From: a virus
Virus record (IMG/VR): IMGVR_UViG_3300042559_001081
Location: 62,001-126,000 of that record
DNA length: 64,000 nucleotides
Direction: 5' to 3' (one strand)
Part shown: one piece after another, positions 33,723-63,774 of the stretch
Layout of the letters: each line of letters opens with the position of its first letter
Position numbering within the stretch: the first letter of the stretch is position 1
Program-made: the position numbers and the translations under genes
The notes under the pieces: model-generated
Told to the model about the DNA's origin: nothing
Database searches by the model: none
Seen by the model: the letters and a program-made list of their open reading frames with translations, nothing else

Positions 33723-33730
33723 TATTTATT
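33723..33730 (-). promoter_or_regulatory. T4-type late promoter box
   Basis: Leftward AATAAATA overlapping the stop codon of the giant gene, 17 bases before the ATG at 33705. The surrounding AT-rich run makes it less certain than the others. Confidence 0.45.
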
Positions 33731-36700: not shown

Positions 36701-39700
36701 TGCTACTTAATTGCTGAATTCCATTTATTGTAACAACGTAGCTATCTGTTCTAACATTCATTGGCCATTTTAGTACAAATTTTTCTTTTGCTGCTGTTCC
36801 TACAAATGATTCTGTTTCTTCTAATTCAGTAAACAGATAAGAACTGCTAATTCTGTCAAATCTTAAAACAACGTGTGCTGATCTAACAACTCCGTTTCCT
36901 AAAATAGCAACAGCAACCGCTGGTTCTCCGCCTTCATCTTGTGTTCCGTTAATAGATATCAATGGTGCTTTATAATATTTTCCACCTTTATTTACTATTT
37001 CAATTTTTGACACACGGCCTCTACTTAAGTAAGCTTTTGCTGTAGTTCCGTTCTCGCCTTCAACTACAACAACCGGTGTTTCTTTGTATTTTGATCCACC
37101 GTTAGCTACTTCTATAGATACAATATCGTAACCGTTGTTTTCTGTCCAACTTCTGTAAGGGTATTGTAAGTATTTGTCAATAACATCTTGAATTTGATTG
37201 TTTTCATACTTAGCATAACTAGTTTCTATTTCTTTTGTTATTTCGTTATAGCTAGGAGGTAAGTCAAAATCTGTAACCAGTGATTCAGTAGGTTCGATAG
37301 AAGAATACGCACTTATATATTCTCTTACTTTTGTACTGTATGGCTTTACTTCGTTAACATAATCTTGATAATTTTCGAGATTATCGTTTTGGAAGTTAAC
37401 AGGTTGATGCAAGTTGCCAACATTGTGTTTTACTCTTACAAAGCTAGTTTTAAAGGCCCAGTCAAGTCCATGCTGCTCGTGTATTGCATATCTTAAACTT
37501 GCAAAGAATAGATTTATGTATTCAACTGCTAAATCGCCTATAAATATTTCATTTTTTAACGCTGATAAAATATTTCTCAATTCGTTTACAGGTTCTTTAT
37601 CATAGAATGTTAAGTCAAATACGTTTGCATCATATCCGCTGTTGATAGATGCATAATCGTATAGCCTTGTAGAAAGCTGTATAGTACCATTTTGTCTACC
37701 CACAGTTTTATAATTTACTGTATAATCTTCAGTTGTCGAATCTGCAATTTTTTCTAACAATAGCCAACCGCCAGAACCGATGTTATTAATTTTTATAACT
37801 TCTCCGATTTCGTCGTCGAGTCCAAATAATTCATAACTTTGATCTACAACATGATCGATTTGTGTTAGGCTTGTATAGTCCGATAGATACCAGTCAGCAT
37901 AGTCCCAATATCTAGTAGTGTCGTAGTTCTGATTGTCTTTTCTATTCCAAGTTTGTGTTGCTTTGTTCCATTCATAAATTGCCCAACGGCCGCCTATTTC
38001 GGCATCAGCCTTAACTAAAACACTGTACTTTCTAACATTCAATTTTACATTGTCAGTATAGTTTTTACCAGAAGATCTAATATATGTACTAGTAATTTGT
38101 CCAAGATTGTTTATTGTTGTTTTAACAATTGCATTAGTGCCATTGCTGTCAACTATTTCAACATTCGGTGCAACACGATAACCTCTACCTGGATTGTCAA
38201 TGTTTATAGAAATAATTTTTCCATTTTCAATCACCGGTGTTAATTGAGCTTGTTCTGTTTTTGATACTCCTACAAAACGAAGATCGTCTACTGTGTCAAC
38301 TATGCTGTCATATCGACCTGTAGTTATTGCTGGTTCCTCATCTTTTAAGAATAATGTAGAAATATCATAGTTGTCAACTATTTGTCTAGTAATTAAAACA
38401 CTGTTTGTTCTTTCAACAAGTTGTTTGACTGCTTCTAATCTATTTACAAACATTCCTTGACGTGGAGCATTTAAAATTCCATATTTCTGTCTAACAGTTA
38501 ATGACGAATCTGGAACATTTTTTGAATTTTGATCATAACCAACTAAACTGTCAACCCATTTGTTTTCAATTTCAGAATTTAATATAACATTGTTATATCC
38601 TTCAGTTATAAGCTGATATTCTGAATGTATATTTGAATTTAATGTTTCATCTTTGGCTATAGTAAAGTGGATCGCAGTATTTTTGTCTTCTATAAAAGTT
38701 TTTACATTATACAATGCAAAACTATTATCGCTTAACAACACTGCAAAACGATATCCTTGCCCAGCCGGATCTGCTATTAGATTTTCTATTGCAGATGCAG
38801 ATAGTTGACGTTTACTATTTTCTGGAACATTCTTTTTACTCTTAACCCAGAAATAGAATCTATCTACAAACGATCCTGACACAGGATCATAAACTTTTTT
38901 AGAACTGTAAATAGTATCGTCGTATAAAGGCTGACCACTTATGCCTTCGGCAAATCCAGAAGGAGTATCTGCTAATGCAGCCCATCTTGATGGAATTACT
39001 GTTGATTCTACCCATTCATAAACATCGATTGATGCACCTGGTAACAGCTTATTCCAATTCGAAATTCTGTATTGATCGTCTCCTTGATAAGGATTAAACC
39101 AACTAGCAGTTTCTAATTTCCACCAAAGTTTTCCAACTTGGCTTTCTGTCCAACTGTTAACTGTATCAACAACAACACCGTCTTGTTGATTTACATTAAA
39201 TGAATAGATAGCAGGATCGTAGAAGGTCTTCCATGTAATTTCTTGTTCAGCAGGACCTGGTATTTTTCCTTGACGAGGATCAATTACATCAAGATTTACT
39301 AATAAATCATTGGTATTAATCGAATACAAGAAGCATCTTTGTATTTTTTCATTATTCGGTTTGCCTTCTTGTATTGTTACTTCCGTCCAGCTATTTGAAT
39401 TCTTTGTAGAACGCAAGTCTGCAAATAATCCTAGAGATGAGTCTTCAGAAGACTCATAGTTATAAATTAAAGCAGAATCTTCAGTGTTAGCAGGATTTAG
39501 TTTAGGAAAACCTATATATAGATGATTATCTATTAATTTGAAGTTACTAATGTCGTTATACTTTGTATTTCGATTGTATGCAACATCCTCGCCATATATA
39601 TAAGAATCTCCAAGTTTTTGGAATAACGCAATTCTGCCAGTATCTTTCAACACATTGACAAAGTTTGTGTAACCGTTATCAAATGTTGTGTATTCTTTTC

Positions 39701-42700
39701 TTTCATCAGAAGTCGGGTCGTTTACATACTTCGAATACTTAATGCTTCCGGTTTCTGTTTTTCCAACCATAATACCATAAAGATTTTCAGTGTATCTGTC
39801 AAATGTTGTAACAACTCTTTTGTCTGTATTTTTTCCAGAAATAGCTAATTTATTTCCATAAAAATCTAAACCAGTACCAAACGACTCGTTCTTTTCTTCA
39901 AACGGGCTTCTTAATGTTTGTAATAATTCATAAGTTGATACATTGTCTGTTGTTACTTGTTTATAAATGTATACGCATCCGCCGTCTATTTCAATATCAT
40001 CGTTTCTCGGTGCACCGATACCAATTCTGTCTCCTGTGTCATTTATAGAAACTTTAAATCCAAAACTTTCTGACATGTCAGACGTATCGATATGTTGAGA
40101 AAACTTCCATCTACTTAAATTATTTCTATATATCGATACTCTTTCTGATCTTATCCCCGATCCAAGATTTACTGAGCTGGAAAGAATAATGATGTCGCCA
40201 AGTGTATTAACATCAAAGTTCTTTCCTATGTTGATTGCATCGTTATACAACGAGCTATCGCCTTCGTTGTCAATGATGTTGTTTATTCTTGGTATGTATC
40301 CTGTATATTCTACAGTTTCGTCATCAAGTAAGATCCACAATGATGACGCTTCTGGAATTGCAGAGCCTGGAGTTATATTTGTATCAGCACGGTATACCTG
40401 TCCATTGTAGAATACTATTTCATTTAAGTTATAACTAGCAAAGTCGCTGTATACTCCTCTATACATTTTATCTTTGCTGTATTCCCATGTATTATCCGAG
40501 TTATCAATAAAATAAATTCTTCCACGTGATAATGATTCTGTACCAGGTGCTCCAACAAATAACTTTACATCTCCAGTTGCTGTTGTTCTAAGCTCAACTT
40601 TATATCCAAATCTTTCGTTGTTTTTCGGATCTGGACTTGCTATACAATGTACTAAATTATAATATCCAGTAGTTTGTCTTTCATAAAGATATACAACACC
40701 TTGATTTGTAAGTCCTGATTCTGTACCGTCGTCAGTGGTTTCTATTATATAGACTGGTTCCCAGTCTTGATCGGTTGTGCTTATAGTACTGCTTTCATCC
40801 CAAGGTGCAAAGGAAGAAATAGCTCTCCATAGCATTCCGTTATCGTTTACAATATCTCCCATTTGATAAACTGTTCCAGGTGTTAAATCACCTTTAAATT
40901 TAGTTTTAATATTGCTTGCATATGGTGCACCTATTGCAAGATACTTACCATTACTGCTTAATGCAACATCGTATCCAAATGCAGAATATCCACTAACAGT
41001 GTCATCTTGTACAAGAGACTGTATTTCTCGTTTATCAATTGACTCTGTAGATCTTGCATAAATTCTTACTATACCTCTTTCGAAGTCGTCAGATACAGAA
41101 CCGATTGCTAGTATAGTGTTAGCTATATTTGAATCAAAGCTAGTAGCAAATCCGTCGCCGTCTAGTGTAGGATTAATAATTTCTTCTTGAAGAGAAAAAA
41201 TGTTTTCGTTTGTATAAACACCCCAGGCATTATCACCTTTGTTATCTATCCAAACAGTATCATTAAATTCTTGCTTAAGAGATTTTATGCTCGAATTCAA
41301 TGTAGTCGAATCAGCAAATCTTCTAGTAACAAATTTAGCTACTCCTACTTCATTGCTGTCAGGTAAGCCGACTGAAGAGTTGTTACCCTCTGTTGTTATA
41401 CTGTTTAAGTTTCCTGCATTTATTACTTGAACTTTGTTTAATGAAACTGCCCAAATTTTATAAAATTTAGTAATACTATCATTGGTAGACAGTAAGCCTA
41501 TGATTTCACCTTTTTGATATTGAGTTTCAATGTAATTTTCAAATACAACAGTGAATCCTTCGATTACGTTTCCGTTTTCGTCAATAACTTCATCGCTGAT
41601 AAAAGCACTGTCAAAACTTAAAATCTTGTCACCAGTTTTAACTAATCTTAATACATCCCAAGTTTGATTGTAATTTGTTACCCAAATAAAATCACCTACT
41701 CTAATATTAAATGCCGACAGTTCGAGGATTGAATCGTAGCCATTAACAACTGCGGCTACATCTTGTTCTCTAATATAACCGTTGTCTTTAGTGTATATTG
41801 TGTTTGTTGTATTAGATTCAAACGGAGCATGATTATAGTCGTCTGGTCTCAGATAGACTTCGTAAGGTGCAATTTCTTGTACTAGATCTGTTCTAGTGCT
41901 AGATTTAGAATCTACCAGTTCGATAATTTGAGGCTCAAGTTTATATTTTAATTCGTCGATGAGATACTCTATCTCATAAATGTTATCGGTAGAACCGTAT
42001 TGTCCAAGACGAACTGCCCATTCTTCGTAGAATTCTAGACTTTCTTCTCCCGCAGTGCTTAATGCATCAAACAGTTTTGTTAAAGCGTTTTTAGTACCTT
42101 TTTCGGCTATGTATCCTTGATAAAACTTATATTGGCTTACACTGTCTGTAATAATGTTTGAAAGATATTCTCTCTTTTGATATCCGATTAAATGTTGTCC
42201 AAGACGTTGTTGTTCAGTGTCAAAGTTATCTGTATCCAAATCATAGAAATCAGCAAATTGATTAGCTTTATAATCCCAGTTTGCATACAACCTTGATTCC
42301 GGCTTTTCAGTTAATCTATTCCAATTATTAGCATCAAAGAATTCATTACTTGTATGTTTAATGTTAGCACTGTAATAAAATTCTTTATACTTTACTAAAT
42401 CACCTATTGCATAATCTGTCCAGATACTCCAATTTGTAATCTTCGCTTCATCAAAAATAAATCCAGGAATATTTAGACTTCCGTCCCAATTATCTGTTCT
42501 GTATCCAACAACTTTGATTCTCTCTTGTCTATACCCTGGAACTTTGTCATAAATTGTATCATTAAACACTGTTTGATTATCAATTATTATAACATGTTCT
42601 TTTTGTATTAGAGGTAATTTTACTAAGAAAATTCCTTCATCGGAATTTACCGGAGTTACTCCAAATGTATTCGACGAAGTTCTAAAAATATTAGAAAATT

Positions 42701-45700
42701 CTTTAGATATTCTACTGCCGTTACCGCTTATCAATGAATAATCGTAAAACGAGTCAAAGATATCATCTACTACAAAATAATCTCTTGAAAATTCAACCTT
42801 GTTCGCAACTGGACTTACTGTTAATACAGTTCCGTTATCCCAGTTTTGTGTAACCCAAAACATATATTCTTTAATGCAAAGTAACATATCTTCTAGGGCT
42901 TCTGTGTTTTTATTATAAAAATTAAACACAAATCCTTTACTAACAAGGTATGCTTCATAACCTTGCATAAAATCTACAACATCTTGTACAGTTGTTAATA
43001 TAGATCCGTATGGCATTGCTGTTACTTGAGTTTCAAATTCTTTTCTAAGTAACGCAGTAACCCCACCCACAACTGGCAATCCTGATAACTTTACAAACTT
43101 TAATGGATCGAAAGATTCATCACTTAAATGTGTAACTTTTGTTCTATAGTATTCACTGTTATATCTAACAACTATACCAATAGTATAATTTTTATTAGAA
43201 TCCCACTCAACAAATTGCTCACTTATTCCACCAACTGCTATAGCAGAATCTGTTGATCTTGTAATCGGTTTATTATAATAAAAAATAGGATCTTCTTTAT
43301 CGTAGCCCGAAATTAAATATCCTGACTCTATCTTTTCTATAATAATTCCACTAAACACAACTGTCTCTAAAACACTGCTCTTAGCTAGTGTAATTTGATA
43401 ATTTTCGTCCGGAATAAATACAGAGGTTTTATTCAACGGATTTCTGCTATCTAATACTAATTTTAACTTAGACTTATCAGCATACCCACTGAGTTTTAAT
43501 GCTAATTGATTGTCTAAATTAGCTAATTGAGTTTTATAAGTTTCGTATTTCGATGTAACCTTACTCGAAATATAACTACTAATATAGTTAACTAATCCAG
43601 ATGTTAGAACTAAGTTTTCTGTTGTTGTAATTGTTGGGAATTTTAAATCTTTAAGATTAATTCTTTTCTTAGTGTCCTTGTAAACCAAGTTTCCAGCATT
43701 GTCTCTCAACATTCTGCTTAAATCAAAACCAACGCCAAGCAACTTAGTCGGCTGCAATAATACCCATGCTGTAATTAACGAAAATGGATATTCACTGCTT
43801 CTTCTCCACGCTGTTTCTACAGGCGAAATATCTCCAAAAACAAAATTATTTTTAGATTCAAGTAAAACAAAGTCTTGTGCTAAACTTGAATCTAGAGGAC
43901 TTAAAAGTTGTCCGTATTCGTTTACAGGAATGTAATCGAGCAATCCTGGGCGAGCATATTTTTTGTTTCTTGATACAGGTTTTCCTGGTTCTCTAATTAT
44001 ACCTTCGGCTAAATCATTCCATAAAATAAGATTATCTTTTGTATACGGAGCAGGACCGTACAGAGATTCCCACCAAGTTGGCTTTATGTTAAATCCGAGC
44101 ATTTCCCAAGGATGCGAATGTGGGCGGTCTGTATCAAAATATTCTTTGTAAACATTTCTCCAGTAACCTTTTAGAGGGTTGCCGTTTCTATCCGACATCG
44201 ACGAATAATTGTAAGTAAAGCTTACATCTTTATCCCACCAGCTATGATCTGCATAGTTCGGCGATCCAGCTAATTCTAGCCATTGTGCAAAATCTGACAA
44301 TAATACATTATCAATATCGGTTTTTGAAAATCCGGTATTTCTGTTTATAGAACCTACAAAATCATCCAAGTTAAGTTTGTCTGTATCGTAAAGTATTTTA
44401 ATATTATTATAAATTCGGGTTTCAAGTTCTAGTAACAGGTCGTCTCTGTAATCGCCAAACCCAATTGTTAAACTTCCGTCGTGTCCCTGTATTACAATTT
44501 TAGGTTCACTGTAAGTATTGTCAACAAATATAGACGGTTCAAACTTCGGATAAAGTCCGAGTTTAGTTGGTGTTGGAGGGATGTTAGATCCTGCTGTTGA
44601 CTCATATTCATAAATTTCAACAATATCGCCGTATTGTAAATCTCTATTAATGTACACATAGTTTTCAGTAAATGTGTAATCCTTACTATAAAGAAGTTGA
44701 TTGCCGTTTAAATAAACTCCAACCGCATTAATAGATAAAGAATCTAAATTAAATACTTTTGACATTGAAAAATATGCAGGTCCTACATATTCTACAGTAT
44801 GTATTGTTTTCTTTGCAGCACCAAATCCTAACATATCACTAAAATAGAAAGATTTATTGCCAATGTTTTCTTTAACAATTTTATCTATAACTAAGTCAAA
44901 ATGAGATTTTGTTGGACCAACATAGCCTGTTTGTTCAGATTCAAGTAAGAATTTACGCTTAAATTTTGCATACTCTTTTCTTGCATATTTTAAAGATTTA
45001 ATTATATTTGCATTCTTGTCAGTTATGTGATATAGTGCAATATTTAATGGACCACTGTGTTGAACAAATCTAGTACCATACACAGATGCAGGAGACAAGT
45101 CTCTTAAGTTACTTACTCCAGGATAGCTTCCTGTAAACCCTGGAACATTTTCAACTATAGAATTTACGTGGTCGTTAACTTCGCCTAGTGTAAAATATGT
45201 TACATTATCATTTAATGGATTTCTTTCTAAGTTTGACGGTATCTCGTAAAATCCGTTTTGATTTTTCGAAGCACTACTATAACACTTTAAAAGTACAATG
45301 TCGCCTATTGTTAGATTATTTAAAAATTCAACAAAAGCATATCCATTTTTAACAGAAATTACGTAGTCAATATTATTTTTTTGTTTAACGCTGTTAACGT
45401 AAACTTTTACTTCTAAATCAGACAAATCACCACTGTTATTGAAAACATCTACTTTGAATGATTCGTTAATAGACGATACTGTAAATTGTCTAATTACGTA
45501 TTGTTTACTATTATTTTTAGCTTTTGTCCATCCGTTAACATATGAAAATGTATTTTCATTAGGTTTAAATTTTTTTAAAAACGCAGTATCAGTTGGCAGA
45601 TCTGTTTCAACTTGTGAATCTGTTTGATATATTATAGAATCGTTTAATAAATTAAATTCAAAAATAATATCGCCAACATTATTGATATTTCTGTAACTTA

Positions 45701-47537
45701 AAGGAAATCCTAATTCTGGATCAACAGTACCAGTTCCTTCTTTATATGAAAATACTTTATTTCCACTAAAGTTACTAGAAGTATAAACCGATGTATCGCC
45801 GTAGCTATATCCATTTTCGTCAAACAGATCAAATCTTGGAAATTGGTTTACTGATAATTTTTCTTGAGACTGTTTCCATGTAGATCCGTCATAATAAAAC
45901 ATTTTTCCTTTATATGTTAGACCATCAGTGATTAAAACTACATCCTCAAATTGAGGTACAGAATCAGCAGCTTCTATTAATGATATCTGTCTACGACCGT
46001 TGTGTGTAATAAACTTTACTTCATAAACTCTTCCGTTAACTAGTATGTCAGTGTCAGCAGAAAATATTACACGCATGCCTTCGACTAAATCGATACCATC
46101 TATGTTATATCCTAATGCACCTTCTATTTTACTAAATGCATCTTGGGTATAAGTATCGATTAAGGTAACGTTATTTTTTGCTTTAGTTCCATGTTTCCAA
46201 AGCTTTAATCCTCCCTCAAATTCGATAATAGGTCTTTTAGCACGATTGTTTTCATCTAATTCAACAGGCAAGTTATTTGCAGTAAATGAAGTTTCAATTA
46301 CTGATCTGTGAAACCAACGATTATATCTTGACCAAGGATTTTTGTCAGCACTAGCACGATTTATTACAATATAGTCTTTTGTTCCTGGAAAACTAGTTGC
46401 ATCTTCAAAAGGTAAGTTGTCAAATCCGTCGTTGTCAAACGGAACTTCGTACTCTTGAGTAAAAATTGCAGGTACTTCTAGGTTTCTTTCTGATACTAGA
46501 TATATCTCAGATCCTACACCACTAATGTACCAATATCCAGTTTCGTATTCTTCAGGAATAACCGATCCTTGGAAATAAACCTTCATCCCGTTAGAAAGTT
46601 CTACACCACTAGATGTTTTATAAGTTTTTTTACCTATTATTTCATTAGTAACATTAATTTGTGTGTTTTCAGATATTTCAAATATTGTTACTATACCACT
46701 TGTGTTGATATCATTCTGACTAACATAATATAAAACTGCTGGAGCATCATCAGGCACTGTAAATTCAATAACACCATTTTCAACATAATCAGAATCCGAT
46801 GTTATACCTTTTTTGTAAAGAGTGCTTTGATTTAGGTAATCAGTGTTAGATGTAGGATCAGTATCTAAGAAATTTCTAGATGTAACAAAAGCAATAGGAT
46901 GACCAGGAGTATTAACTTCAAATCTATAAGTCTGTCCTTTGAACAACTTAATTGACGGATTTCTAGTTAAACCATTAGGTGTAAAAATGTATGCAGTGTT
47001 GTCACCTTCATCAGAAGTGACTACTGTATATGTACTTACAACATCTCTTGATTGTCCTGCAATACCAATAGGTTGAGGACCCATAGGCAACCAATAATAT
47101 TCTCTAAAGTTTACAAACTTATCCCAACAAATATGAGGATCCCATGCATAAAATTCTTGACTATTTAATAAACTGTGGTTATCGACTGTACCTTTAAAGC
47201 TACTAATTTGTCCAATATAGTCGTTATAATTTTTAAAAAATTCAATATTGTTTAAATCGTCTTTATACAAAAGAGATGGTTCTAATTGATAATTTTCTCT
47301 AGATGGCAAAACATCAGAAAGATAAACATCTGACGATGTTGCTGCTTTTGCATGTCTTCTTCCTGCAAATGCATTCACCTTCTCAACAACACCCGGCTTA
47401 ATCATTTGATCCATGGTGCTGCTTAAAAACTTCTTGTTTACAGAAGTTCTAAAATACTTTGGCAAAAAGTCTGAAGAAGTTGCATTATTTGATCCTCCAG
47501 TTGGAAGAGGAAAATCTGATTGATCATTATGTGCCAT
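33726..47537 (-). CDS. Giant virion protein, baseplate/fibre-type adhesin (4,603 aa)
   Basis: An uninterrupted 13.8-kb frame. Visible parts, N to C: a conserved head (residues 1-130); a cupredoxin-like beta domain with FKGQTYRFEVNTPGHPIAF (about 165-275); four W..Y..G..V.Y...YY modules like CBM5/12 carbohydrate-binding domains (near 1444, 1701, 2215 and 2356); seven FG-GAP-like blades (about 2140-2700, for example LAIGAPYASN, LFVGAPG, IGIGAPRNDD) that could close a seven-bladed propeller; GxGYxxxPxVxI-type repeats (near 3110 and 3480); and many Ig-like beta units to a C-terminal FLREATILLPK. No catalytic motif is seen. It probably binds cell-surface glycans from the baseplate. Its ATG shares one base with the gp6 stop. 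Confidence 0.8.
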   Translation of the reverse strand: MAHNDQSDFPLPTGGSNNATSSDFLPKYFRTSVNKKFLSSTMDQMIKPGVVEKVNAFAGRRHAKAATSSDVYLSDVLPSRENYQLEPSLLYKDDLNNIEFFKNYNDYIGQISSFKGTVDNHSLLNSQEFYAWDPHICWDKFVNFREYYWLPMGPQPIGIAGQSRDVVSTYTVVTSDEGDNTAYIFTPNGLTRNPSIKLFKGQTYRFEVNTPGHPIAFVTSRNFLDTDPTSNTDYLNQSTLYKKGITSDSDYVENGVIEFTVPDDAPAVLYYVSQNDINTSGIVTIFEISENTQINVTNEIIGKKTYKTSSGVELSNGMKVYFQGSVIPEEYETGYWYISGVGSEIYLVSERNLEVPAIFTQEYEVPFDNDGFDNLPFEDATSFPGTKDYIVINRASADKNPWSRYNRWFHRSVIETSFTANNLPVELDENNRAKRPIIEFEGGLKLWKHGTKAKNNVTLIDTYTQDAFSKIEGALGYNIDGIDLVEGMRVIFSADTDILVNGRVYEVKFITHNGRRQISLIEAADSVPQFEDVVLITDGLTYKGKMFYYDGSTWKQSQEKLSVNQFPRFDLFDENGYSYGDTSVYTSSNFSGNKVFSYKEGTGTVDPELGFPLSYRNINNVGDIIFEFNLLNDSIIYQTDSQVETDLPTDTAFLKKFKPNENTFSYVNGWTKAKNNSKQYVIRQFTVSSINESFKVDVFNNSGDLSDLEVKVYVNSVKQKNNIDYVISVKNGYAFVEFLNNLTIGDIVLLKCYSSASKNQNGFYEIPSNLERNPLNDNVTYFTLGEVNDHVNSIVENVPGFTGSYPGVSNLRDLSPASVYGTRFVQHSGPLNIALYHITDKNANIIKSLKYARKEYAKFKRKFLLESEQTGYVGPTKSHFDLVIDKIVKENIGNKSFYFSDMLGFGAAKKTIHTVEYVGPAYFSMSKVFNLDSLSINAVGVYLNGNQLLYSKDYTFTENYVYINRDLQYGDIVEIYEYESTAGSNIPPTPTKLGLYPKFEPSIFVDNTYSEPKIVIQGHDGSLTIGFGDYRDDLLLELETRIYNNIKILYDTDKLNLDDFVGSINRNTGFSKTDIDNVLLSDFAQWLELAGSPNYADHSWWDKDVSFTYNYSSMSDRNGNPLKGYWRNVYKEYFDTDRPHSHPWEMLGFNIKPTWWESLYGPAPYTKDNLILWNDLAEGIIREPGKPVSRNKKYARPGLLDYIPVNEYGQLLSPLDSSLAQDFVLLESKNNFVFGDISPVETAWRRSSEYPFSLITAWVLLQPTKLLGVGFDLSRMLRDNAGNLVYKDTKKRINLKDLKFPTITTTENLVLTSGLVNYISSYISSKVTSKYETYKTQLANLDNQLALKLSGYADKSKLKLVLDSRNPLNKTSVFIPDENYQITLAKSSVLETVVFSGIIIEKIESGYLISGYDKEDPIFYYNKPITRSTDSAIAVGGISEQFVEWDSNKNYTIGIVVRYNSEYYRTKVTHLSDESFDPLKFVKLSGLPVVGGVTALLRKEFETQVTAMPYGSILTTVQDVVDFMQGYEAYLVSKGFVFNFYNKNTEALEDMLLCIKEYMFWVTQNWDNGTVLTVSPVANKVEFSRDYFVVDDIFDSFYDYSLISGNGSRISKEFSNIFRTSSNTFGVTPVNSDEGIFLVKLPLIQKEHVIIIDNQTVFNDTIYDKVPGYRQERIKVVGYRTDNWDGSLNIPGFIFDEAKITNWSIWTDYAIGDLVKYKEFYYSANIKHTSNEFFDANNWNRLTEKPESRLYANWDYKANQFADFYDLDTDNFDTEQQRLGQHLIGYQKREYLSNIITDSVSQYKFYQGYIAEKGTKNALTKLFDALSTAGEESLEFYEEWAVRLGQYGSTDNIYEIEYLIDELKYKLEPQIIELVDSKSSTRTDLVQEIAPYEVYLRPDDYNHAPFESNTTNTIYTKDNGYIREQDVAAVVNGYDSILELSAFNIRVGDFIWVTNYNQTWDVLRLVKTGDKILSFDSAFISDEVIDENGNVIEGFTVVFENYIETQYQKGEIIGLLSTNDSITKFYKIWAVSLNKVQVINAGNLNSITTEGNNSSVGLPDSNEVGVAKFVTRRFADSTTLNSSIKSLKQEFNDTVWIDNKGDNAWGVYTNENIFSLQEEIINPTLDGDGFATSFDSNIANTILAIGSVSDDFERGIVRIYARSTESIDKREIQSLVQDDTVSGYSAFGYDVALSSNGKYLAIGAPYASNIKTKFKGDLTPGTVYQMGDIVNDNGMLWRAISSFAPWDESSTISTTDQDWEPVYIIETTDDGTESGLTNQGVVYLYERQTTGYYNLVHCIASPDPKNNERFGYKVELRTTATGDVKLFVGAPGTESLSRGRIYFIDNSDNTWEYSKDKMYRGVYSDFASYNLNEIVFYNGQVYRADTNITPGSAIPEASSLWILLDDETVEYTGYIPRINNIIDNEGDSSLYNDAINIGKNFDVNTLGDIIILSSSVNLGSGIRSERVSIYRNNLSRWKFSQHIDTSDMSESFGFKVSINDTGDRIGIGAPRNDDIEIDGGCVYIYKQVTTDNVSTYELLQTLRSPFEEKNESFGTGLDFYGNKLAISGKNTDKRVVTTFDRYTENLYGIMVGKTETGSIKYSKYVNDPTSDERKEYTTFDNGYTNFVNVLKDTGRIALFQKLGDSYIYGEDVAYNRNTKYNDISNFKLIDNHLYIGFPKLNPANTEDSALIYNYESSEDSSLGLFADLRSTKNSNSWTEVTIQEGKPNNEKIQRCFLYSINTNDLLVNLDVIDPRQGKIPGPAEQEITWKTFYDPAIYSFNVNQQDGVVVDTVNSWTESQVGKLWWKLETASWFNPYQGDDQYRISNWNKLLPGASIDVYEWVESTVIPSRWAALADTPSGFAEGISGQPLYDDTIYSSKKVYDPVSGSFVDRFYFWVKSKKNVPENSKRQLSASAIENLIADPAGQGYRFAVLLSDNSFALYNVKTFIEDKNTAIHFTIAKDETLNSNIHSEYQLITEGYNNVILNSEIENKWVDSLVGYDQNSKNVPDSSLTVRQKYGILNAPRQGMFVNRLEAVKQLVERTNSVLITRQIVDNYDISTLFLKDEEPAITTGRYDSIVDTVDDLRFVGVSKTEQAQLTPVIENGKIISINIDNPGRGYRVAPNVEIVDSNGTNAIVKTTINNLGQITSTYIRSSGKNYTDNVKLNVRKYSVLVKADAEIGGRWAIYEWNKATQTWNRKDNQNYDTTRYWDYADWYLSDYTSLTQIDHVVDQSYELFGLDDEIGEVIKINNIGSGGWLLLEKIADSTTEDYTVNYKTVGRQNGTIQLSTRLYDYASINSGYDANVFDLTFYDKEPVNELRNILSALKNEIFIGDLAVEYINLFFASLRYAIHEQHGLDWAFKTSFVRVKHNVGNLHQPVNFQNDNLENYQDYVNEVKPYSTKVREYISAYSSIEPTESLVTDFDLPPSYNEITKEIETSYAKYENNQIQDVIDKYLQYPYRSWTENNGYDIVSIEVANGGSKYKETPVVVVEGENGTTAKAYLSRGRVSKIEIVNKGGKYYKAPLISINGTQDEGGEPAVAVAILGNGVVRSAHVVLRFDRISSSYLFTELEETESFVGTAAKEKFVLKWPMNVRTDSYVVTINGIQQLSSKFVIGNDIDKSKGFDRHLGYIKFVDAPALGSQISITYKKDISLLHAADRINFFYNPTTGMAGKDLSQLMDGVTFEGVNVNSVDFGTEQGFGVGGYGSMPWDTFDNTYEDEIFILDGSTSILTLSKPLELNVEYNFYLNNIRLDDENYGTSTPLSNLNAKMATIIGDGVTDTVTIDEELIETVANDIVIIRKSTSDGSFAPTDTSYDTSISGGNFAYTTATGLSSADITIDGDGFVTASSRGPEELVPGQVLDTLDLKVYHRSADGVGIVTVANYKIDGTRSVFDLPNIPQTADGIIVKVDNQILKPDMFTVDYEDQTISFSDSTIPTGSLLSILTIGVNGANLIDTEYTISDGSTTSYVTSAVWSETLSTFVTVNGIVKEKGRDYNQIRTQDTEQYPNRLKIVFESSAIANGDLIQYSIYDTPLKTYSQIIIDRTFEADGSTDYHDFDGTDNPVPFNKQPLAYNLIVKSNNQILSPGYSKSFITTDEREYAIDSWQYSDTTTIDEANVLVFVNGIQLTKEEFTFDSTVGIVRLLQEDIGISGSTLEVYIITDADYYFIDSRIKFSSAVDSMIVADSEITLVSTNDSSSYTAYVKTVSEDEIVVRSFRNDIRNSFTISPEFELSETLLTILDVTYELSDSLTFATPPSSGTDIEIYQFSNHDINNFKRTLYKVLRDTYVDETTENWITRNLTSSGYIKLNGTTSSANYVWVALNGELLTPNIDYVLVPTMDAIQLSSLPFNNDKIDVIEFGNSPVSPKYGFRIFKDMLNRTHYKRLNQSNSYVLAEPLNYYDLRIVLESTSGIFQPNKSKNIPGVVFIDGERIEYFEVVGNKLQQLRRGTLGTGVKNLYNVGTVAYGQGPEETINYSDVVLTQTEIADGSSTATTFAFRDYMIPESVDEIEVFVAGRRLRKNSIQLFDQTIAQDSPEGDVTIPPEFSIEDNNLVLAIAPPAGVKVVIARSTGKVWNESGKSLTTSNNNISRFLREATILLPK

Positions 47538-58851: not shown

Positions 58852-59676
58852 ATGAAAAAAGTAAACTATCTTAATAACAAAGACATGTTATTAGAAATAC
58901 ACAAGTCAAAGAACACGTTTTCAAGCTTTGTTGACCCCGATTATGTTGATTATGATCTAATTTTGCCTGATCTAGACAAGATTAATATAAGAACTATTGC
59001 AGAAGCAAAGAAAAATAGAGCAAAAAAACTTACTTTAAAAAAGTACGAAGAAGAAAAACTTCTAAATAATAAAACAAAGTTATCTGAAATAGAGATAGAC
59101 TATAAAAAAATAGAAAAAACTGACTTAATTTTTAGAATTATGACATACGATCACATACCAGAAGAAGCAGGTCGTAAAAAAAATCCAAAAAATGTTGCAG
59201 ACACTAAAGTAAAATTAAATTTTCCACCATTTCAACATTGGAAATTTGATGAAAATGACAATCTTATATGTGTTGGAAAAAGTCATTGGCAAGGTGGCAT
59301 GGAAAACGGGCATTTTTCTAAAGATCACGGAAAAGCAACAAACAAGCTTGCACTTATGTGGATGAAATTATGTGATCGTTATGCTACTCGTGGTAATGTT
59401 CGTGGTTATACCTACAACGACGAAATGAAGGGACAAGCAATACTACAGCTAGCACAAATAGGGTTGCAGTTTGATGAGTCAAAAAGTCAAAATCCATTTG
59501 CCTATTACACAGCCGCAGTTACTAACAGTTTTGTAAGAGTTATTAATTTAGAAAAACGTAATCAAAATATTAGAGATGACATTCTCGAAATGAACAACTT
59601 GAATCCTAGCTTTACTCGTCAAAGTGCTGGTGAATTCGAAGCTGGCTTAAAAAGATTCAATGATAGCCATGATTAA
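58852..59676 (+). CDS. gp55: Late-transcription sigma factor gp55-like (274 aa)
   Basis: The C-terminal 150 residues match the gp55 family: KATNKLALMWMKLCDRYATRGNVRGYTYND in parts, then AILQLAQIGLQFDESKSQNPFAYYTAAVTN in parts, which correspond to the sigma region 2 helices that open and read the -10-like box. The N-terminus has a long charged extension, so the protein is longer than T4 gp55 (185 aa). It reprogrammes host RNA polymerase to the late TATAAATA promoters seen in this window; T4 also needs gp33 and the gp45 clamp, which are not here. It has its own sigma70-type promoter. Confidence 0.9.
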   Translation: MKKVNYLNNKDMLLEIHKSKNTFSSFVDPDYVDYDLILPDLDKINIRTIAEAKKNRAKKLTLKKYEEEKLLNNKTKLSEIEIDYKKIEKTDLIFRIMTYDHIPEEAGRKKNPKNVADTKVKLNFPPFQHWKFDENDNLICVGKSHWQGGMENGHFSKDHGKATNKLALMWMKLCDRYATRGNVRGYTYNDEMKGQAILQLAQIGLQFDESKSQNPFAYYTAAVTNSFVRVINLEKRNQNIRDDILEMNNLNPSFTRQSAGEFEAGLKRFNDSHD

Positions 59677-59736: not shown

Positions 59737-60747
59737 GTGTTTAAGAAAGCAGCAGTGTTTACGGACCTTCATTGTGGTATGAAGGGTAATTCAAAAATTC
59801 ATAATCAGGATTGTGAAGATTTTGTTGATTGGTATATCGAAACTGCCCAAAAAAATGGATGCGATACTGGAATCTTTTGCGGTGATTGGCATCACAACAG
59901 AAATAGTTTAAATTTAACAACTATGGATACCAGTATTAGATGTTTAGAAAAACTTGGAAAAGCTTTTGACCAGTTTTTTATGTTTGACGGCAATCACGAT
60001 CTTTATTATAAAGACAAAAGAGATGTAAATTCTACAGCATTTGCAAAACATATACCTGGAATTACAACTATTAACGATATTTACGTTAAAGACGACGTTG
60101 CTCTTATACCTTGGTTAGTTGGCGAAGAATGGAAACGCATTCCTAAGATAAAATCCAAGTATATGTTTGGACATTTTGAATTACCAAGCTTTTATATGAA
60201 CGCAATGGTGCAAATGCCCGATCACGGAGAACTTAAAAGTGAGCATTTTGTAAATCAAGACTATGTTTTTAGTGGACACTTCCACAAAAGACAGAAGCAA
60301 GGCAAAATTCACTACATAGGCAATGCATTTCCGCACAACTACGCCGATACATGGGACGATGATAGAGGAATGATGATCCTCGATCGAGAAAACAATAAAG
60401 AACCAGAGTACATTAATTGGGCAGATGCTCCTAAATATCGAAATGTTATGCTTTCTCAGTTGATAGACAACAAAGATACTTTAATAAAATCAAAAATGTA
60501 TCTTCGAGTAACATTAGATATTCCTATTTCCTACGAAGAAGCAAATTTTATTAAAGAAACGTTCATGGAACAGTACGAATGTAGAGAGATTACTCTAATT
60601 CCACAAAAGCAGATTGAAGAAATTAGCACTGACCTTGATATAGGACAGTTTGAGAGTGTTGATCAGATTGTTAGCAATGAAATTTTAGCTATCGACAGTG
60701 AAAATTTTGATAAATCTCTTCTATTAAAAATTTATAGTGAATTATGA
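59737..60747 (+). CDS. gp47: Recombination nuclease subunit gp47 (SbcD/Mre11 type, 336 aa)
   Basis: Metallophosphoesterase motifs are in order: FTDLHCG (D9, H11), CGDWHHN, DGNHDLYY (N86, H87), FGHFELP and SGHFHKR (H181, H183). Length equals T4 gp47 (339 aa). With gp46 it processes DNA ends for recombination-dependent replication and degrades host DNA. The start is a GTG with GGAG eight bases before it. It overlaps gp46 by 4 bases (ATGA), the normal arrangement for a complex. Confidence 0.93.
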   Translation: MFKKAAVFTDLHCGMKGNSKIHNQDCEDFVDWYIETAQKNGCDTGIFCGDWHHNRNSLNLTTMDTSIRCLEKLGKAFDQFFMFDGNHDLYYKDKRDVNSTAFAKHIPGITTINDIYVKDDVALIPWLVGEEWKRIPKIKSKYMFGHFELPSFYMNAMVQMPDHGELKSEHFVNQDYVFSGHFHKRQKQGKIHYIGNAFPHNYADTWDDDRGMMILDRENNKEPEYINWADAPKYRNVMLSQLIDNKDTLIKSKMYLRVTLDIPISYEEANFIKETFMEQYECREITLIPQKQIEEISTDLDIGQFESVDQIVSNEILAIDSENFDKSLLLKIYSEL

Positions 60748-62531
60748 CAATAAAAATTAAAGACTTATCTGTTAAAAACTTTATGAGTGTGGGTAATGTT
60801 ACTCAGGCTGTCGACTTTAATCGAGAGCAACTCACTCTAGTGCTTGGCGAAAACTTAGATCAAGGAGGTGACGATTCTGGTTCCCGTAACGGTACAGGCA
60901 AAACCACTATTATTAACGGTTTATCATATGCCCTGTACGGCCAAGCACTTACTAATATTAAAAGAAACAACCTAATTAACAAAACTAACAGCAAAGGTAT
61001 GTTAGTTACGTTAAATTTTGAGAAAAATGGGGTTGAATATAGAGTTGAACGTGGAAGATCACCTAATATTCTAAAATTCTTTGTTAACGGTGTTGAAAAG
61101 TCTAGTGAGATCACTGACGAAAGTCAAGGTGATAGTAGAGAAACTCAAAAAGATATCAACGAGTTACTAGGACTTAGTCACAATATGTTTAAACACATTG
61201 TTGCTCTCAATACATACACCGAACCATTTCTTAGTTTAAAGACCAATGAACAAAGAGAAATTATCGAGCAACTGTTAGGCATTACACTACTTTCGGAAAA
61301 AGCAGAATCTCTTAAAGAACAAATAAAAGTAACAAAAGATATTATTACAGAAGAAACTTTAAAGATTAATGCCATTCAAGCAAGCAATGAGAAGATAAAA
61401 GCCAGCATAGATCAGCTTGTTAGTCGTCAACGTGCATGGGAAAGTAAGAAAAAGCAAGATGCTGAGCATTTGCAAAAAGCTATTACCGAACTTGAGCACT
61501 TAGACATTGATTTAGAACTAGAACTTCATGAAAAATTAGTTAATTGGACACAATTAAACAACGAGATCTCTGGTTTAAACAAAGAAAAGTCAACTTTAGA
61601 AACTGCAATGCTACGTGCAAGCAATTCTGTAAAAAAGATCGAAGACGATATTAACAATTTAGATGATGCTGTTTGTTTTACATGCGGTCAAGCGTTACAC
61701 AAAGATAAAAAAGAAAAAATATTAGCTGAAAAAGAAAAAGAACTAGCAGATGCTAACGCATACAAAGACGAAGTTGATTCAAAACTTCAGATTGTTCTTA
61801 AGTCGTTGAGTTCTATCGGTGATATTAACGGAAAACCTGTTACATTTTATGAAACAGCTAAAGAAGCATACGAACATCGTAGCAATGTCGATAATTTAAA
61901 AGTATTATTAAAGAATAAAGAACTAGAAGAAGACACATACCAAGATCAAATAAACGATTTAAAGACAACTGCGTTACAAACAGTCGACTGGTCTACAATT
62001 AACAAGCTAACTTCACTAAAAGAACATCAAGAGTTTCTTTTAAAGCTGTTAACTAATAAAGATTCTTTTATTAGAAAAAAAATTATAGATCAAAACTTAA
62101 ATTATCTAAACAATAGACTGACTTATTACTTAGATAAACTAGGATTGCCTCATCAAGTAGAGTTTTTAAACGATCTAACTGTTCAAATTACACAGTTAGG
62201 TCAAGATTTAGACTTTGACAACTTGTCAAGAGGCGAAAGAAACAGACTTATACTTGGATTAAGTTTTGCATTCCGCGATGTTTGGGAATCTTTGTATCAA
62301 TCAATCAACTTATTGTTTATAGACGAGTTAATTGATAGTGGAATGGACACCGCAGGTGTAGAAAATTCCTTAGGTGTACTTAAAAAGATGGGTCGTGAAA
62401 GAGATAAAAATATATTTTTAATATCTCACAAGGATGAATTGATAGGAAGAGTTAATAATGTTCTTAAAGTTATTAAAGAAAATGGGTTCACATCCTATCA
62501 ACCTGACTTAGAAGTTACAAGTATAATTTAA
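60744..62531 (+). CDS. gp46: Recombination nuclease subunit gp46 (SbcC/Rad50 type, 595 aa)
   Basis: Walker A is at about 46-55 (GSRNGTGKTT); coiled-coil arms flank the zinc-hook CFTCGQ at C311 and C314; the ABC signature LSRGERNRL is near 494 and Walker B LLFIDELID ends near 529, followed by LISHKDEL. Length is close to T4 gp46 (560 aa). The ATPase drives the gp47 nuclease. The two CxxC hooks of a dimer bind one zinc. Nothing is missing. Confidence 0.93.
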   Translation: MTIKIKDLSVKNFMSVGNVTQAVDFNREQLTLVLGENLDQGGDDSGSRNGTGKTTIINGLSYALYGQALTNIKRNNLINKTNSKGMLVTLNFEKNGVEYRVERGRSPNILKFFVNGVEKSSEITDESQGDSRETQKDINELLGLSHNMFKHIVALNTYTEPFLSLKTNEQREIIEQLLGITLLSEKAESLKEQIKVTKDIITEETLKINAIQASNEKIKASIDQLVSRQRAWESKKKQDAEHLQKAITELEHLDIDLELELHEKLVNWTQLNNEISGLNKEKSTLETAMLRASNSVKKIEDDINNLDDAVCFTCGQALHKDKKEKILAEKEKELADANAYKDEVDSKLQIVLKSLSSIGDINGKPVTFYETAKEAYEHRSNVDNLKVLLKNKELEEDTYQDQINDLKTTALQTVDWSTINKLTSLKEHQEFLLKLLTNKDSFIRKKIIDQNLNYLNNRLTYYLDKLGLPHQVEFLNDLTVQITQLGQDLDFDNLSRGERNRLILGLSFAFRDVWESLYQSINLLFIDELIDSGMDTAGVENSLGVLKKMGRERDKNIFLISHKDELIGRVNNVLKVIKENGFTSYQPDLEVTSII

Positions 62532-62533
62532 AA

Positions 62534-62800
62534 ATGACTAGAAAAACTTATCCTTTAAAAGTACACATTGATGATACACACGACAAACTAGCAAAGGCGT
62601 ATCTCGAATATTTCAAAGCAAACGAAATATTCGAGCAACGTCCATCTGAACCAAAACGCCGTATAGTTCGAAAATGGCTTCAAGAGATAAGACATTATGC
62701 TAAATTACGTAGAGTAGAGGTAATTGAGTCTCATCTTAACAAGCAAGAAAGATACAAACGCGGTGGCAAGCAAAAGCAAGACAAAGGGGAAGGGGTTTGA
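62534..62800 (+). CDS. Small basic protein after gp46 (88 aa)
   Basis: The gene starts two bases after the gp46 stop. The protein is short, very basic and helical: LAKAYLEYFKANEIFEQRPSEP (in parts), then KRRIVRKWLQEIRHYAKLRR. I know no function; genes of this size behind gp46 are usual in T4-like marine phages, I believe. DNA binding is likely from the charge. Its last 38 bases overlap the nuclease gene in another frame, around a G-rich run with a candidate frameshift site. There is no clear ribosome-binding site of its own, so it is probably coupled to gp46. Confidence 0.65.
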   Translation: MTRKTYPLKVHIDDTHDKLAKAYLEYFKANEIFEQRPSEPKRRIVRKWLQEIRHYAKLRRVEVIESHLNKQERYKRGGKQKQDKGEGV

Positions 62801-63278
62801 AAGAGAAATTGCAAACTTCTTATCAGAACTCTACGAAGATTCTTTTACTAGAGTACCTGATTCGGGTGCATTTACCGGAGGCAAAAACGCTCATAGACGA
62901 GATAAGCTCACTGAAGGTCAAATTAGATCCCATAAAGGCGACATCATTCCACCCGACGACTGGAAAAAATTTAACGCAGAGTGTAAAAACTATGCGGAAT
63001 TCCCGTTTCACCAATTAATTTCTTTAGGCCACATACCTTTACTCGAAGGTTGGATTTCACAAACACTAGAAGCAGCAGACCAAGGCGACATTAATATTAT
63101 CTTTATGAAGTTTAATCGTAAAGGCAGATATGTTTTATTTCAAAAAGAAAACGACTTTCAAACTTACAGGCACGTCGACTATCAAGATAAATCAGGCAAC
63201 TACTGGCGATTTACAAGCTTTGACGATTTCTTTTCCTTAAACAAAGATTTATTTCAAAAAAACTGCACAGGCATTTAA
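62763..63278 (+). CDS. PD-(D/E)XK nuclease, Hjc-like (171 aa from GTG)
   Basis: KGKGFEREIANFLSEL opens the fold with the first glutamate (FERE), followed by VPDSGAFTGG, the acidic GDIIPP, and FNAECKNY with the E-x-K pair. This order, with FERE, SGA, D and ExK, fits archaeal Hjc-type Holliday junction resolvases and related nucleases. It would cut branched DNA before packaging, which T4 does with gp49. The frame has no ATG start: the GTG at 62763 is the natural N-terminus but has only AAGAAAG before it, and a TTG at 62724 is also open. A +1 frameshift from the gene before is another possibility. Confidence 0.75.
   Translation: MASKSKTKGKGFEREIANFLSELYEDSFTRVPDSGAFTGGKNAHRRDKLTEGQIRSHKGDIIPPDDWKKFNAECKNYAEFPFHQLISLGHIPLLEGWISQTLEAADQGDINIIFMKFNRKGRYVLFQKENDFQTYRHVDYQDKSGNYWRFTSFDDFFSLNKDLFQKNCTGI
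62781..62800 (+). other. Candidate +1 frameshift site
   Basis: In the overlap of the 88-aa gene and the nuclease gene the sequence AAAGGGGAAGGGGTTTGA ends the first frame as GTT TGA. A one-base forward slip would read TTT GAA and join the nuclease frame. A Shine-Dalgarno-like AGGGG lies about five bases before, as in bacterial RF2 (a similar sequence ending CTT TGA). The nuclease frame is open upstream, so the slip is possible but not required. Confidence 0.3.
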
Positions 63279-63289
63279 GGCTAACATCA

Positions 63290-63665
63290 AACAGCACATA
63301 AGGTTGGCGGGCCAGTTTATAATACCGCTGTGGAAAAGTCGGCTTGATACCCGAACACGTGACATGTTGAGACATTGCCGGTAGTAGGCTCTAAGTATTG
63401 ACATTGAATGATTGCTGTCATTCAAAAACACCGCATACTCCTAAACACTTAAGGATTGAGGAACGAGCTTAAGACAGGCAGTGCAGCGTAAACAGTACAT
63501 TGAAAAGTGTATTGTTTATGACGCATTGCCTGGGTCGACGCAGGTAGGGAAAAGGTTAGAGTCCCTGGAGTTGGTGTATAAACAAAAAACCTGCTTCCCG
63601 TGTCTCGGCTAGTGCAACTCACATGAAGTCAACGACGACGGAACCTTAAAACAGGTTCCGTCTGA
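63290..63665. ncRNA. Candidate structured non-coding RNA
   Basis: G+C is 166 of 360 (46%) over 63301-63660 by hand count, against 40 of 120 (33%) just before. Complementary pairs: GTCGGC/GCCGGT (63338-63343, 63377-63382); TTGAATGA/TCATTCAA (63404-63425, 6-nt loop); CTTAAG/CTTAAG (63448-63473); a long hairpin of CAGGCAGTGC with GCATTGCCTG and inner TAAACA/TGTTTA (63475-63532); GCAGGT/ACCTGC (63540-63594) enclosing AGGGA/TCCCT; and GACGGAACCT/AGGTTCCGTC (63637-63662, 6-nt loop). I could not match it to tmRNA, RNase P RNA, a group I intron or tRNA. Strand and ends are uncertain. Confidence 0.55.
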
Positions 63666-63766
63666 CCAGATTAATCTACATGAAGTATTTCACTTCGTGC
63701 TTAATATTATTTAGAAAAGAAATGTGTTGAGCGATAGCGAAACACAGATGAACGTAGTTCATCTTG

Positions 63767-63774
63767 TATAAATA
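63767..63774 (+). promoter_or_regulatory. Perfect T4-type late promoter box
   Basis: TATAAATA on the + strand, 28 bases before the ATG at 63803 and just after a perfect 8-bp hairpin. It marks the next rightward gene as late, unlike the gp55-gp46 genes upstream. Confidence 0.75.

What the first reader, a model, noticed from the sequence alone, without database searches (positions are those of the whole stretch)
63279..63766. G+C-rich, hairpin-dense intergenic region: possible new phage RNA
In an AT-rich phage genome this 360-nt stretch rises to 46% G+C (hand count), has no gene, and contains at least six complementary stem pairs, some with 8-10 perfect base pairs and short loops. Elevated G+C with nested stems is how structured RNAs stand out in AT-rich genomes. 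It does not fit tmRNA, RNase P RNA, group I intron or tRNA signatures that I know. It lies between recombination genes and a late gene, a plausible place for a regulatory or ribozyme-like RNA.
Basis: partly seen in the sequence, partly recalled or inferred. Interest (0 to 1): 0.8.

Follow-up and report, generated by a model that had tools for sequence, protein, structure and literature searches.

The report
Phage RNA with twin matching words
Behind the recombination genes of many uncultivated phages lies an undescribed folded RNA of about 400 bases that carries one seven-base word twice; the word differs between phages, yet the two copies change together, as if both had to fit the same unknown partner.

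Summary
Window 63285-63690 (+) encodes a structured non-coding RNA that no Rfam 15 model matches. A 62-pair pseudoknotted fold, tested on 44 homologues, keeps 93.9% of cells paired (33-42% when slid; 82% in shuffles), with 314 two-sided changes (109±8 in shuffles). G·U far outnumbers A·C in the stems (469 to 35), so the + strand is read. The new point lies in the 3' module: two direct copies of a 7-nt word, about 57 nt apart around a G+C-rich hairpin, after CUC in copy 1 and UCU in copy 2. In class A the copies agree in 88 of 89 RNAs (12 words, at least 22 changes on a core tree). In a second RNA class with an unrelated core they agree in 55 of 56 (12 other words, at least 19 changes). An RNA of 121Q/GAP32-type jumbo phages (four copies in coliphage 121Q) has the same layout, with weaker evidence. 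No partner was found in cis or in the genome stretches searched, so the mechanism is inferred: an RNA whose two word copies grip one partner. Cage, nuclease-guide, ribozyme and DNA-site readings remain as rivals.

The parts
63285..63690 (+). the RNA (class A), ends approximate; conserved from helix P1 to the second word
63300..63315 (+). most conserved box AAGGTTRGCGGGCCRG; its GGUU (63302-63305) may pair with 63664-63667
   Evidence: pairing predicted by RNAalifold, varied only by G-U/G-C changes
63291..63296 (+). helix P1, 5' strand; pairs with 63413-63418
   Evidence: 4 of 6 pairs change on both sides, 99.6% of cells paired (helix 1)
63413..63418 (+). helix P1, 3' strand, lying in the loop of hairpin 63406-63410/63419-63423, which makes a pseudoknot
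   Evidence: helices 1 and 6
63307..63328 (+). hairpin GCGG (63307-63310) / CCGC (63325-63328), invariant in 44 sequences, so without covariation
   Evidence: helix 2
63329..63359 (+). helix 63329-63332/63356-63359 enclosing covarying hairpin 63339-63342/63351-63354
   Evidence: helices 3 and 4 (82.7% of cells paired in the inner hairpin)
63364..63404 (+). helix 63364-63370/63398-63404
   Evidence: and helix 5
63437..63441 (+). pseudoknot strand ACUCC, pairs with GGAGU 63567-63571 (window register read by eye)
   Evidence: all 5 aligned pairs change on both sides, 86.6% of cells paired (helix 7)
63448..63473 (+). hairpin CUUAAG...CUUAAG with invariant GGAACGA on the loop side
   Evidence: helix 8 (76.8% of cells paired, the weakest helix); pair 63448/63472, one nucleotide off the register seen by eye
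63475..63532 (+). variable hairpin, missing or different in relatives
63540..63594 (+). helix 63540-63545/63589-63594, with inner hairpin 63546-63550/63562-63566 and conserved loop AAAGGUYAGAG; crossed by 63437-63441/63567-63571
   Evidence: helices 9 and 10
63618..63627 (+). CUC (63618-63620) followed by word 1, ACAUGAA (63621-63627)
   Evidence: CUC in 89 of 89
63637..63662 (+). G+C-rich hairpin GACGGAACC/GGUUCCGUC between the words
   Evidence: helix 11
63675..63684 (+). UCU (63675-63677) followed by word 2, ACAUGAA (63678-63684)
   Evidence: UCU in 89 of 89
63767..63774 (+). T4-type late promoter TATAAATA of the downstream gene; NATAAATA in 49 of the 72 relatives in which a downstream ORF was found
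   Evidence: sequence; late-promoter type recalled, late sigma factor found at 58852-59673
62724..63278 (+). neighbouring PDDEXK_15 endonuclease gene; most relatives have a SegE-type GIY-YIG gene here instead

Best explanation
Shown: a phage-encoded, roughly 400-nt, pseudoknotted non-coding RNA of a family not in Rfam, selected on the + strand, found once in this genome and placed behind gp47-gp46. Its 3' module carries the same 7-nt word twice, after CUC and after UCU, around a hairpin, and the two words stay identical while the word itself changes between phages. Inferred: the RNA works in trans as a scaffold with two equivalent recognition segments. Each contacts the same partner sequence, or the two equal halves of one partner (base pairing with one RNA or DNA sequence, or binding by a dimeric protein), and this double grip controls or tethers the partner, perhaps at the switch from replication to late functions. 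The core pseudoknots would present the two words; the fixed CUC/UCU flanks and the spacing near 57 nt would set their geometry.
For: Real RNA: 62 pairs on 44 sequences, 93.9% paired against 33-42% slid and 82.4% shuffled; 314 two-sided changes against 109±8; further pair types 81 against 74±2.5, reached by 4 of 500 shuffles. Own tree-based null: 11 column pairs above all values of 60 null alignments, 10 of them of base-pair type, two of which share a column. G·U 469, A·C 35. Twin words: equal in 88 of 89 class A RNAs (L177 matches 6 of 7 when read directly), 12 words, at least 22 changes; equal in 55 of 56 class B RNAs, 12 other words, at least 19 changes. In class B 75 of 79 pattern loci match 7/7, 3 match 6/7, 1 is a chance hit; controls reach at most 6. 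A search that presupposes no flanks finds an identical 7-mer pair 45-70 nt apart in 76 of 79, and 75 of these have the CTC/TCT flanks. In class B five column pairs of the two copies, four in the word and one at position 8, exceed all nulls; in class A two do so less clearly, E=0.08 and 0.13. Functional rather than copied: flanks CUC and UCU differ in all 89 class A RNAs; positions 0-5 agree in 126 of 126 contexts, 6 in 124, while in class B position 7 agrees in 3 and position 8 in 51 of 54. Word 1 lies in a hairpin loop in class B (closing stem 5.4 against 3.6 shuffled).
Against: No partner was found: no complement in cis, no consistent excess of own word in 14 records, no syntenic site, none at gene starts, no intergenic third copy in 136 kb of the own genome. 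No transcript data. Word 2 is not better enclosed by a stem than shuffles in either class (3.20 against 3.56; 3.03 against 3.64), nor is word 1 in class A (3.83 against 3.72), so two equal loops are not shown. In ten of the 12 jumbo-phage copies a terminator seems to lie between the words. Recombination between phages could inflate the count of word changes. Trans action is inference.
Confidence: 0.45

Rival explanations
1. RNA-only scaffold: like GOLLD and ROOL the RNA assembles into a homo-oligomer, and the words are equivalent contact sites inside the assembly.
For: Large, pseudoknotted, phage-borne RNA found in several gene contexts. GOLLD and ROOL form RNA-only cages with conserved intermolecular kissing loops, and ROOL occurs in phages and prophages (passages of PMC12286853).
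Against: Contacts by base pairing need complementary, not identical, sites; no complement to the word exists in the RNA. No Rfam match to those families.
Confidence: 0.17
2. RNA-guided homing or recombination: the words are guides used with a nearby nuclease; or, in a weaker form, the RNA gene is a favoured target of homing nucleases.
For: A SegE-type GIY-YIG gene lies directly before the RNA in 69 of 84 class A loci, and in 49 of the 84 the upstream frame's stop lies in the RNA's first box; PDDEXK_15 in the window. In 121Q the two genes annotated as HNH endonuclease (91320-92108 and 246019-246630) lie within about 1 kb of two of the four RNA copies, and endonuclease VII lies beside a third.
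Against: The nuclease type changes from phage to phage. In L130 and L177 the neighbours are cold-shock, redoxin and rubrerythrin genes; in L178 and L194 the neighbours tested match no Pfam family (ten ORFs tested). Own word is not enriched or syntenic elsewhere. Seven nucleotides are few for a guide.
Confidence: 0.15
3. Ribozyme or self-processing RNA: the two CUC/UCU-word junctions are two cleavage or ligation sites recognised by the same element, so they must carry the same word.
For: Two crossing pseudoknots in the core; an AGAG in the core of both classes could pair with CUC/UCU (seen; hardly varies, so untested); junctions with constant flanks.
Against: No internal guide complementary to the word; no Rfam ribozyme or intron match.
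Confidence: 0.13
4. DNA element: the words are iteron-like sites and the hairpin an origin, packaging or recombination structure.
For: Direct repeats that co-vary within one locus and differ between relatives are typical of iterons (recalled); four copies spread over the 121Q genome; no promoter-like site upstream on the + strand in the window.
Against: G·U 469 against A·C 35 in stems shows selection on one strand read as RNA; a 121Q copy has a TATAAT promoter-like site with TG and a terminator on the coding strand (terminator-like sites exceed shuffles, promoter-like sites do not).
Confidence: 0.07
5. Ordinary long 3' UTR or terminator region without function of its own.
For: It lies directly behind a gene and no promoter-like site stands upstream on the + strand in the window.
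Against: Covariation and the same RNA in other gene contexts.
Confidence: 0.03

Closest known systems
GOLLD and ROOL RNAs
   Same: Large, elaborately folded non-coding RNAs of unknown function; ROOL is found in phages and prophages (passages read).
   Different: No Rfam match; about 400 nt rather than the 659 nt of the ROOL studied there; ROOL is often near tRNA islands, whereas this window has no tRNA; twin words not mentioned in the passages seen.
IS110-family bridge RNA (recalled)
   Same: One RNA with two separate recognition sites.
   Different: No recombinase was seen beside it, none searched for; the two sites here are identical and 7 nt, not two different guides.
TIGR-Tas guide RNA (search listing with start of abstract only, PMC12045711)
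   Same: RNA with short recognition stretches in phages.
   Different: No array: the first box occurs once per record holding it; structured 400-nt core; no Tas gene was seen, none searched for.
Intergenic RNA of 121Q/GAP32/RaK2-type jumbo phages (class C here, undescribed as far as searched)
   Same: Syntenic place behind gp46 in 121Q; word, G+C hairpin, word with different flanks.
   Different: No match to the class A or B profiles; word GUCAR with only two states; four paralogues in 121Q; a terminator often between the words.

Membership tests
Any of 4227 Rfam 15 families | covariance model score at or above gathering threshold | tested here: not met
   window: 0 matches; E<=10 only five matches far below cut-off; eight class A/B loci: only tRNAs elsewhere in L250; five jumbo-phage loci: 0, 121Q gap at E<=5 only weak matches
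GOLLD / ROOL / OLE | match to the Rfam model | tested here: not met
GOLLD / ROOL / OLE | homo-oligomeric RNA-only particle | not testable with these tools
   needs biochemistry or cryo-EM
tRNA / tmRNA | ARAGORN model | tested here: not met
   0 genes in the window
Group I or group II intron | Rfam model match | tested here: not met
Group I or group II intron | interruption of a gene with spliced exons | tested here: inconclusive
   the RNA lies between open frames with their own starts and stops; splicing itself not testable here
Retron or other reverse-transcribed RNA | reverse transcriptase in the genome | tested here: not met
   PF00078: 0 of 13 records; records may be fragments
RNA-guided nuclease system | constant neighbouring effector gene | tested here: inconclusive
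   GIY-YIG in 69 of 84 loci, PDDEXK in the window, HNH near two of four 121Q copies, but no nuclease found among ten neighbouring ORFs of L130, L177, L178, L194
Structured RNA family (generic) | covarying helices beyond shuffled and slid controls, strand asymmetry of wobble pairs | tested here: met

The most novel reading that the evidence does not exclude
A widespread class of phage RNAs with at least three dissimilar cores, including those of cultured E. coli jumbo phages, shares one device: two copies of the same evolvable word, set in fixed but different flanks. It would be a bivalent, re-programmable recognition module of phages in which the word names the partner and matching copies are required for function.
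Probability: 0.2. Interest if true: 0.95.

Novelty: categorically new. Interest (0 to 1): 0.85.

Why it matters
The paired words change together at least 41 times on two trees, covariation by identity instead of complementarity, for which I know no precedent in a non-coding RNA. It points to an unknown partner that can be found by experiment: phage Sharanji, listed with host E. coli K12 MG1655, carries the class C RNA.

Tried and rejected
Coding gene: no frame above 60 aa, indels of many lengths. Known RNA: cmscan and ARAGORN negative. Word pairs with a complement in cis: own complement 2 against 5.5 expected as 7-mers; own about equal to foreign with G-U allowed (class B own 124 against 101.5 as 7-mers, with an excess of 12 in one 15-nt bin that has no counterpart in class A). 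Word enriched in the genome: no consistent excess (G016, G017 and G020 slightly above, G010 and G013 below expectation). Syntenic trans partner: only the RNA itself plus coding coincidences; the one followed up (L241/G020) does not follow the word in other phages. Gene-start partner: no family clearly above chance with several words. Third intergenic copy or hairpin-loop copy: none consistent (open frames of 70 codons were masked on both strands, which may hide sites). Reverse transcriptase: none in 13 records. Host-genome copies: 4 pattern hits in a collection of 84,980 species genomes; L245 was read and judged a chance match in G+C-rich DNA; L242-L244 were not inspected. tRNA-anticodon pairing of the word was considered and dropped because six of the seven positions vary and all of these move together. 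Contiguous gene conversion is disfavoured by the position profile. Programmed ribosome bypass was dropped for lack of a frame. Literature: nine searches and term searches with passages in PMC5259590, PMC6892783 (no term found), PMC13282480, PMC13070987 and PMC12286853 showed no description of this RNA; no paper was read whole, and only open-licence papers are covered.

Rows dropped: five chance box hits L085, L092, L120, L180, L187 (judged by eye); six RNAs without a recognisable 3' end, L032, L117, L130, L132, L151, L168, of which L117 and L132 are divergent or hybrid and show no clear twin word by eye, and L130 has copies alike in 6 of 7 by eye; near-duplicates of 95% identity or more; class B hit L302, a chance hit; class B sequences with less than 300 nt upstream, leaving 70, of which 56 non-redundant. 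The detector presupposes CTC and TCT as flanks; the flanks were therefore checked without it. In the strand count one helix was placed one register off (82 'other' cells). A1 holds 44 of the 89 non-redundant RNAs, chosen by hand for diversity. The structure tested was derived from the same family, so the slid control favours it. For class C the search pattern fixed the letters GTCA; only the fifth letter is a test.

Full report
1. Observation. The stretch is the most G+C-rich 360 nt of the window (0.46 against 0.33±0.043), carries no open frame above 60 aa, folds far better than shuffles (z -5.5) and matches nothing in Rfam or ARAGORN. The surroundings are those of a T4-like phage: late sigma factor 58852-59673, gp47-like 59737-60747, gp46-like 60744-62531, an 88-aa ORF, a PDDEXK_15 endonuclease ending at 63278, then the RNA, then hairpins, a TATAAATA late promoter and a further gene. 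The record is 138,699 bases long and holds one copy.

2. Relatives. A profile of the RNA finds it in 50 of them. Of the other 30, 12 hold the core of a different RNA there (class B, below), and 18 contigs stop before or just at the place, judged from gene positions and contig lengths. Eight of the 50 keep only the 3' half of the profile; the four of these that I read have another 5' domain. Exact matches to the box occur once in each of 18 records chosen because they hold it and in 6 of 8 others; the two without are a class B and a short-form phage. In bacterial and archaeal genomes a longer pattern gave four hits; the one I read is not this RNA, three were not inspected. No record of the INPHARED set matches the window's RNA.

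3. It is an RNA. From 94 full-length sequences 89 remain after removing near-duplicates. A G-test with average-product correction against 60 alignments simulated on the tree gives 11 column pairs above all null values; ten are of base-pair type and one (178-301) is not. On an independent MAFFT alignment of 44 of these, a 62-pair structure with two pseudoknots keeps 93.9% of cells paired, against 33-42% when slid and 82.4% when shuffled; two-sided changes occur in 314 cells against 109±8; further pair types are 81 against 74±2.5, a value reached by 4 of 500 shuffles. Two helices are weaker (76.8% and 82.7% of cells paired). RNAalifold finds 17 of 44 nested pairs with two-sided changes. Wobble pairs G·U (469) far exceed A·C (35), so the + strand is the one selected. 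P1 closes with a strand that lies in the loop of the next hairpin, and helix 63437-63441/63567-63571 crosses helix 63540-63545/63589-63594.

4. The twin words. Among the co-varying columns were pairs that are identical rather than complementary (348-409, E=0.08; 350-411, E=0.13). They belong to two direct repeats: CUC-N7 and, 49-68 nt on, UCU-N7, around the hairpin GACGGAACC/GGUUCCGUC. In the window the word is ACAUGAA at 63621-63627 and 63678-63684. Over 89 RNAs there are 12 words; copies agree in 88, and the exception, L177, matches 6 of 7 when read directly. CUC and UCU are invariant in all 89. The word changed at least 22 times by parsimony on a tree of the core alone; exchange of modules between phages could inflate this. 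Position profile over 72 distinct contexts: positions 0-5 agree in all, position 6 in 71, position 7 in 26, position 8 in 44.

5. A second RNA class confirms it. In 12 of the 80 gp46 loci, at the same place, lies an RNA with an unrelated core (GGGGGAUACAGGUCAACCGCCUCC); the nine that I aligned have the same 3' module. In 79 distinct loci with enough downstream sequence, 75 have identical words, three differ at the last base, one is a chance hit; the same detector gives at most 5 in a downstream control region and 6 once in shuffles. Without presupposed flanks, 76 of 79 hold an identical 7-mer pair 45-70 nt apart, 75 with the CTC/TCT flanks. Twelve further words occur. On 56 non-redundant sequences five column pairs of the two copies (four in the word, one at position 8) and three helix pairs exceed all nulls, and the word changed at least 19 times. 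Position 7 differs in 51 of 54 contexts while position 8 agrees in 51, a pattern that copying of a contiguous tract would not leave. L132 looks like a hybrid of the two classes by eye.

6. Jumbo phages. The nearest named gp46 genes (49% identity) lie in jumbo phages. In 121Q an 837-nt gap follows gp46 and endonuclease VII. It is similar to sequence in 41 phage records, and 121Q itself has four copies near 90, 193, 247 and 327 kb, each preceded by a TATAAT by eye. For the copy behind gp46 the scan finds a TATAAT site with TG and a terminator on the same strand; promoter-like sites there are not more than in shuffles (6 against 4.0±2.3), terminator-like sites are (4 against 0.4±0.7). Class A and B profiles do not match it, yet its 3' part again reads word, G+C hairpin, word with different flanks. 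Of 14 copies examined, four from 121Q and one each from ten other phages, both words could be placed in 12. The pattern fixed GTCA; the fifth letter agrees in all 12, A in six and G in six. In ten of these a terminator seems to lie between the words by eye, so there the second word may not be on every transcript. This is weaker evidence than in classes A and B, and homology between the classes is not shown.

7. Partner. I looked for what both words could bind. There is no complement in the RNA or near it, no consistent excess of own word in 14 records, no syntenic copy, nothing clear at gene starts, and in 136 kb of the own genome no intergenic copy outside the RNA. No reverse transcriptase was found in 13 records. 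A host molecule, a site inside a gene, or a protein remain possible.

8. Neighbours. An upstream frame ending at the RNA was found in 84 of the 89 class A loci; 69 of these belong to one family, whose representative (first 120 residues) is a SegE-type GIY-YIG nuclease (PF19835, E 3e-33); in 49 of the 84 the stop codon lies in the RNA's first box. The window has a PDDEXK gene instead. In 121Q the two genes annotated as HNH endonuclease lie within about 1 kb of two of the four copies. In L130 and L177 the RNA sits among cold-shock, redoxin and rubrerythrin genes, and in L178 and L194 beside ORFs without a Pfam match. Nucleases are thus frequent but not constant neighbours; they may use the RNA, or merely favour its conserved sequence as a homing site.

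9. Mechanism. Most likely the RNA offers two equivalent segments to one partner; fixed flanks and spacing argue that geometry matters. Word 1 lies in a hairpin loop in class B, but no enclosing stem was detected for word 2 in either class or for word 1 in class A. Whether the partner is an RNA, DNA or a protein dimer cannot be told here. Cage assembly, an RNA-guided nuclease, self-processing and a DNA site are kept as rivals.

10. Novelty. No Rfam model matches it, and nine literature searches over open-licence papers did not turn up a description. Large phage RNAs of unknown function are a known kind (GOLLD, ROOL); identity-coupled words in two RNA classes with unrelated cores are, to my knowledge, not, and that is why I rate it categorically new. 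I hold the existence of the RNA at about 0.97, the reality of the word coupling at about 0.97, and the stated mechanism at about 0.3 to 0.35.

Noticed in passing
window 63724-63765: Two hairpins (GUGUUGAGCGAUAGCGAAACAC and GAUGAACGUAGUUCAUC) in front of the late promoter are conserved in relatives, including those with the class B RNA (86% identity in L025-L027); purpose unknown.
   Followed up: partly
L001-L201 loci holding the first box: Contigs break unusually often inside this RNA: 37 of 131 end within 420 nt after the first box, 9 in the next 420 nt. Probably shared conserved sequence of co-occurring phages, but a physical cause is not excluded.
   Followed up: partly
L370-L376 (phage 121Q, near 90, 193, 247 and 327 kb): Four paralogous unannotated RNAs of about 500 nt in a cultured coliphage; the two genes annotated as HNH endonuclease (91320-92108, 246019-246630) lie within about 1 kb of two of them.
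   Followed up: partly
L366 11407-12422 (Phosso) and L365 11020-12540 (Paride): Large stretches behind gp46, unannotated or covered by tiny ORFs, in other jumbo phages; may hold further RNA classes.
   Followed up: no
window 62724-63278: PDDEXK_15 gene in the slot where most relatives carry a SegE-type GIY-YIG gene.
   Followed up: partly
words of classes A and B: By eye, position 6 of the 7-nt word is A and position 5 a purine in all 24 words, so the word is not free at every place.
   Followed up: no
window 5196-6719 and 20754-22127 (-): Two proteins with radical SAM matches among the genes of the - strand (the second just below the Pfam cut-off).
   Followed up: no
window 33726-47537 (-): A 4603-residue open frame beside the baseplate wedge gene.
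   Followed up: no
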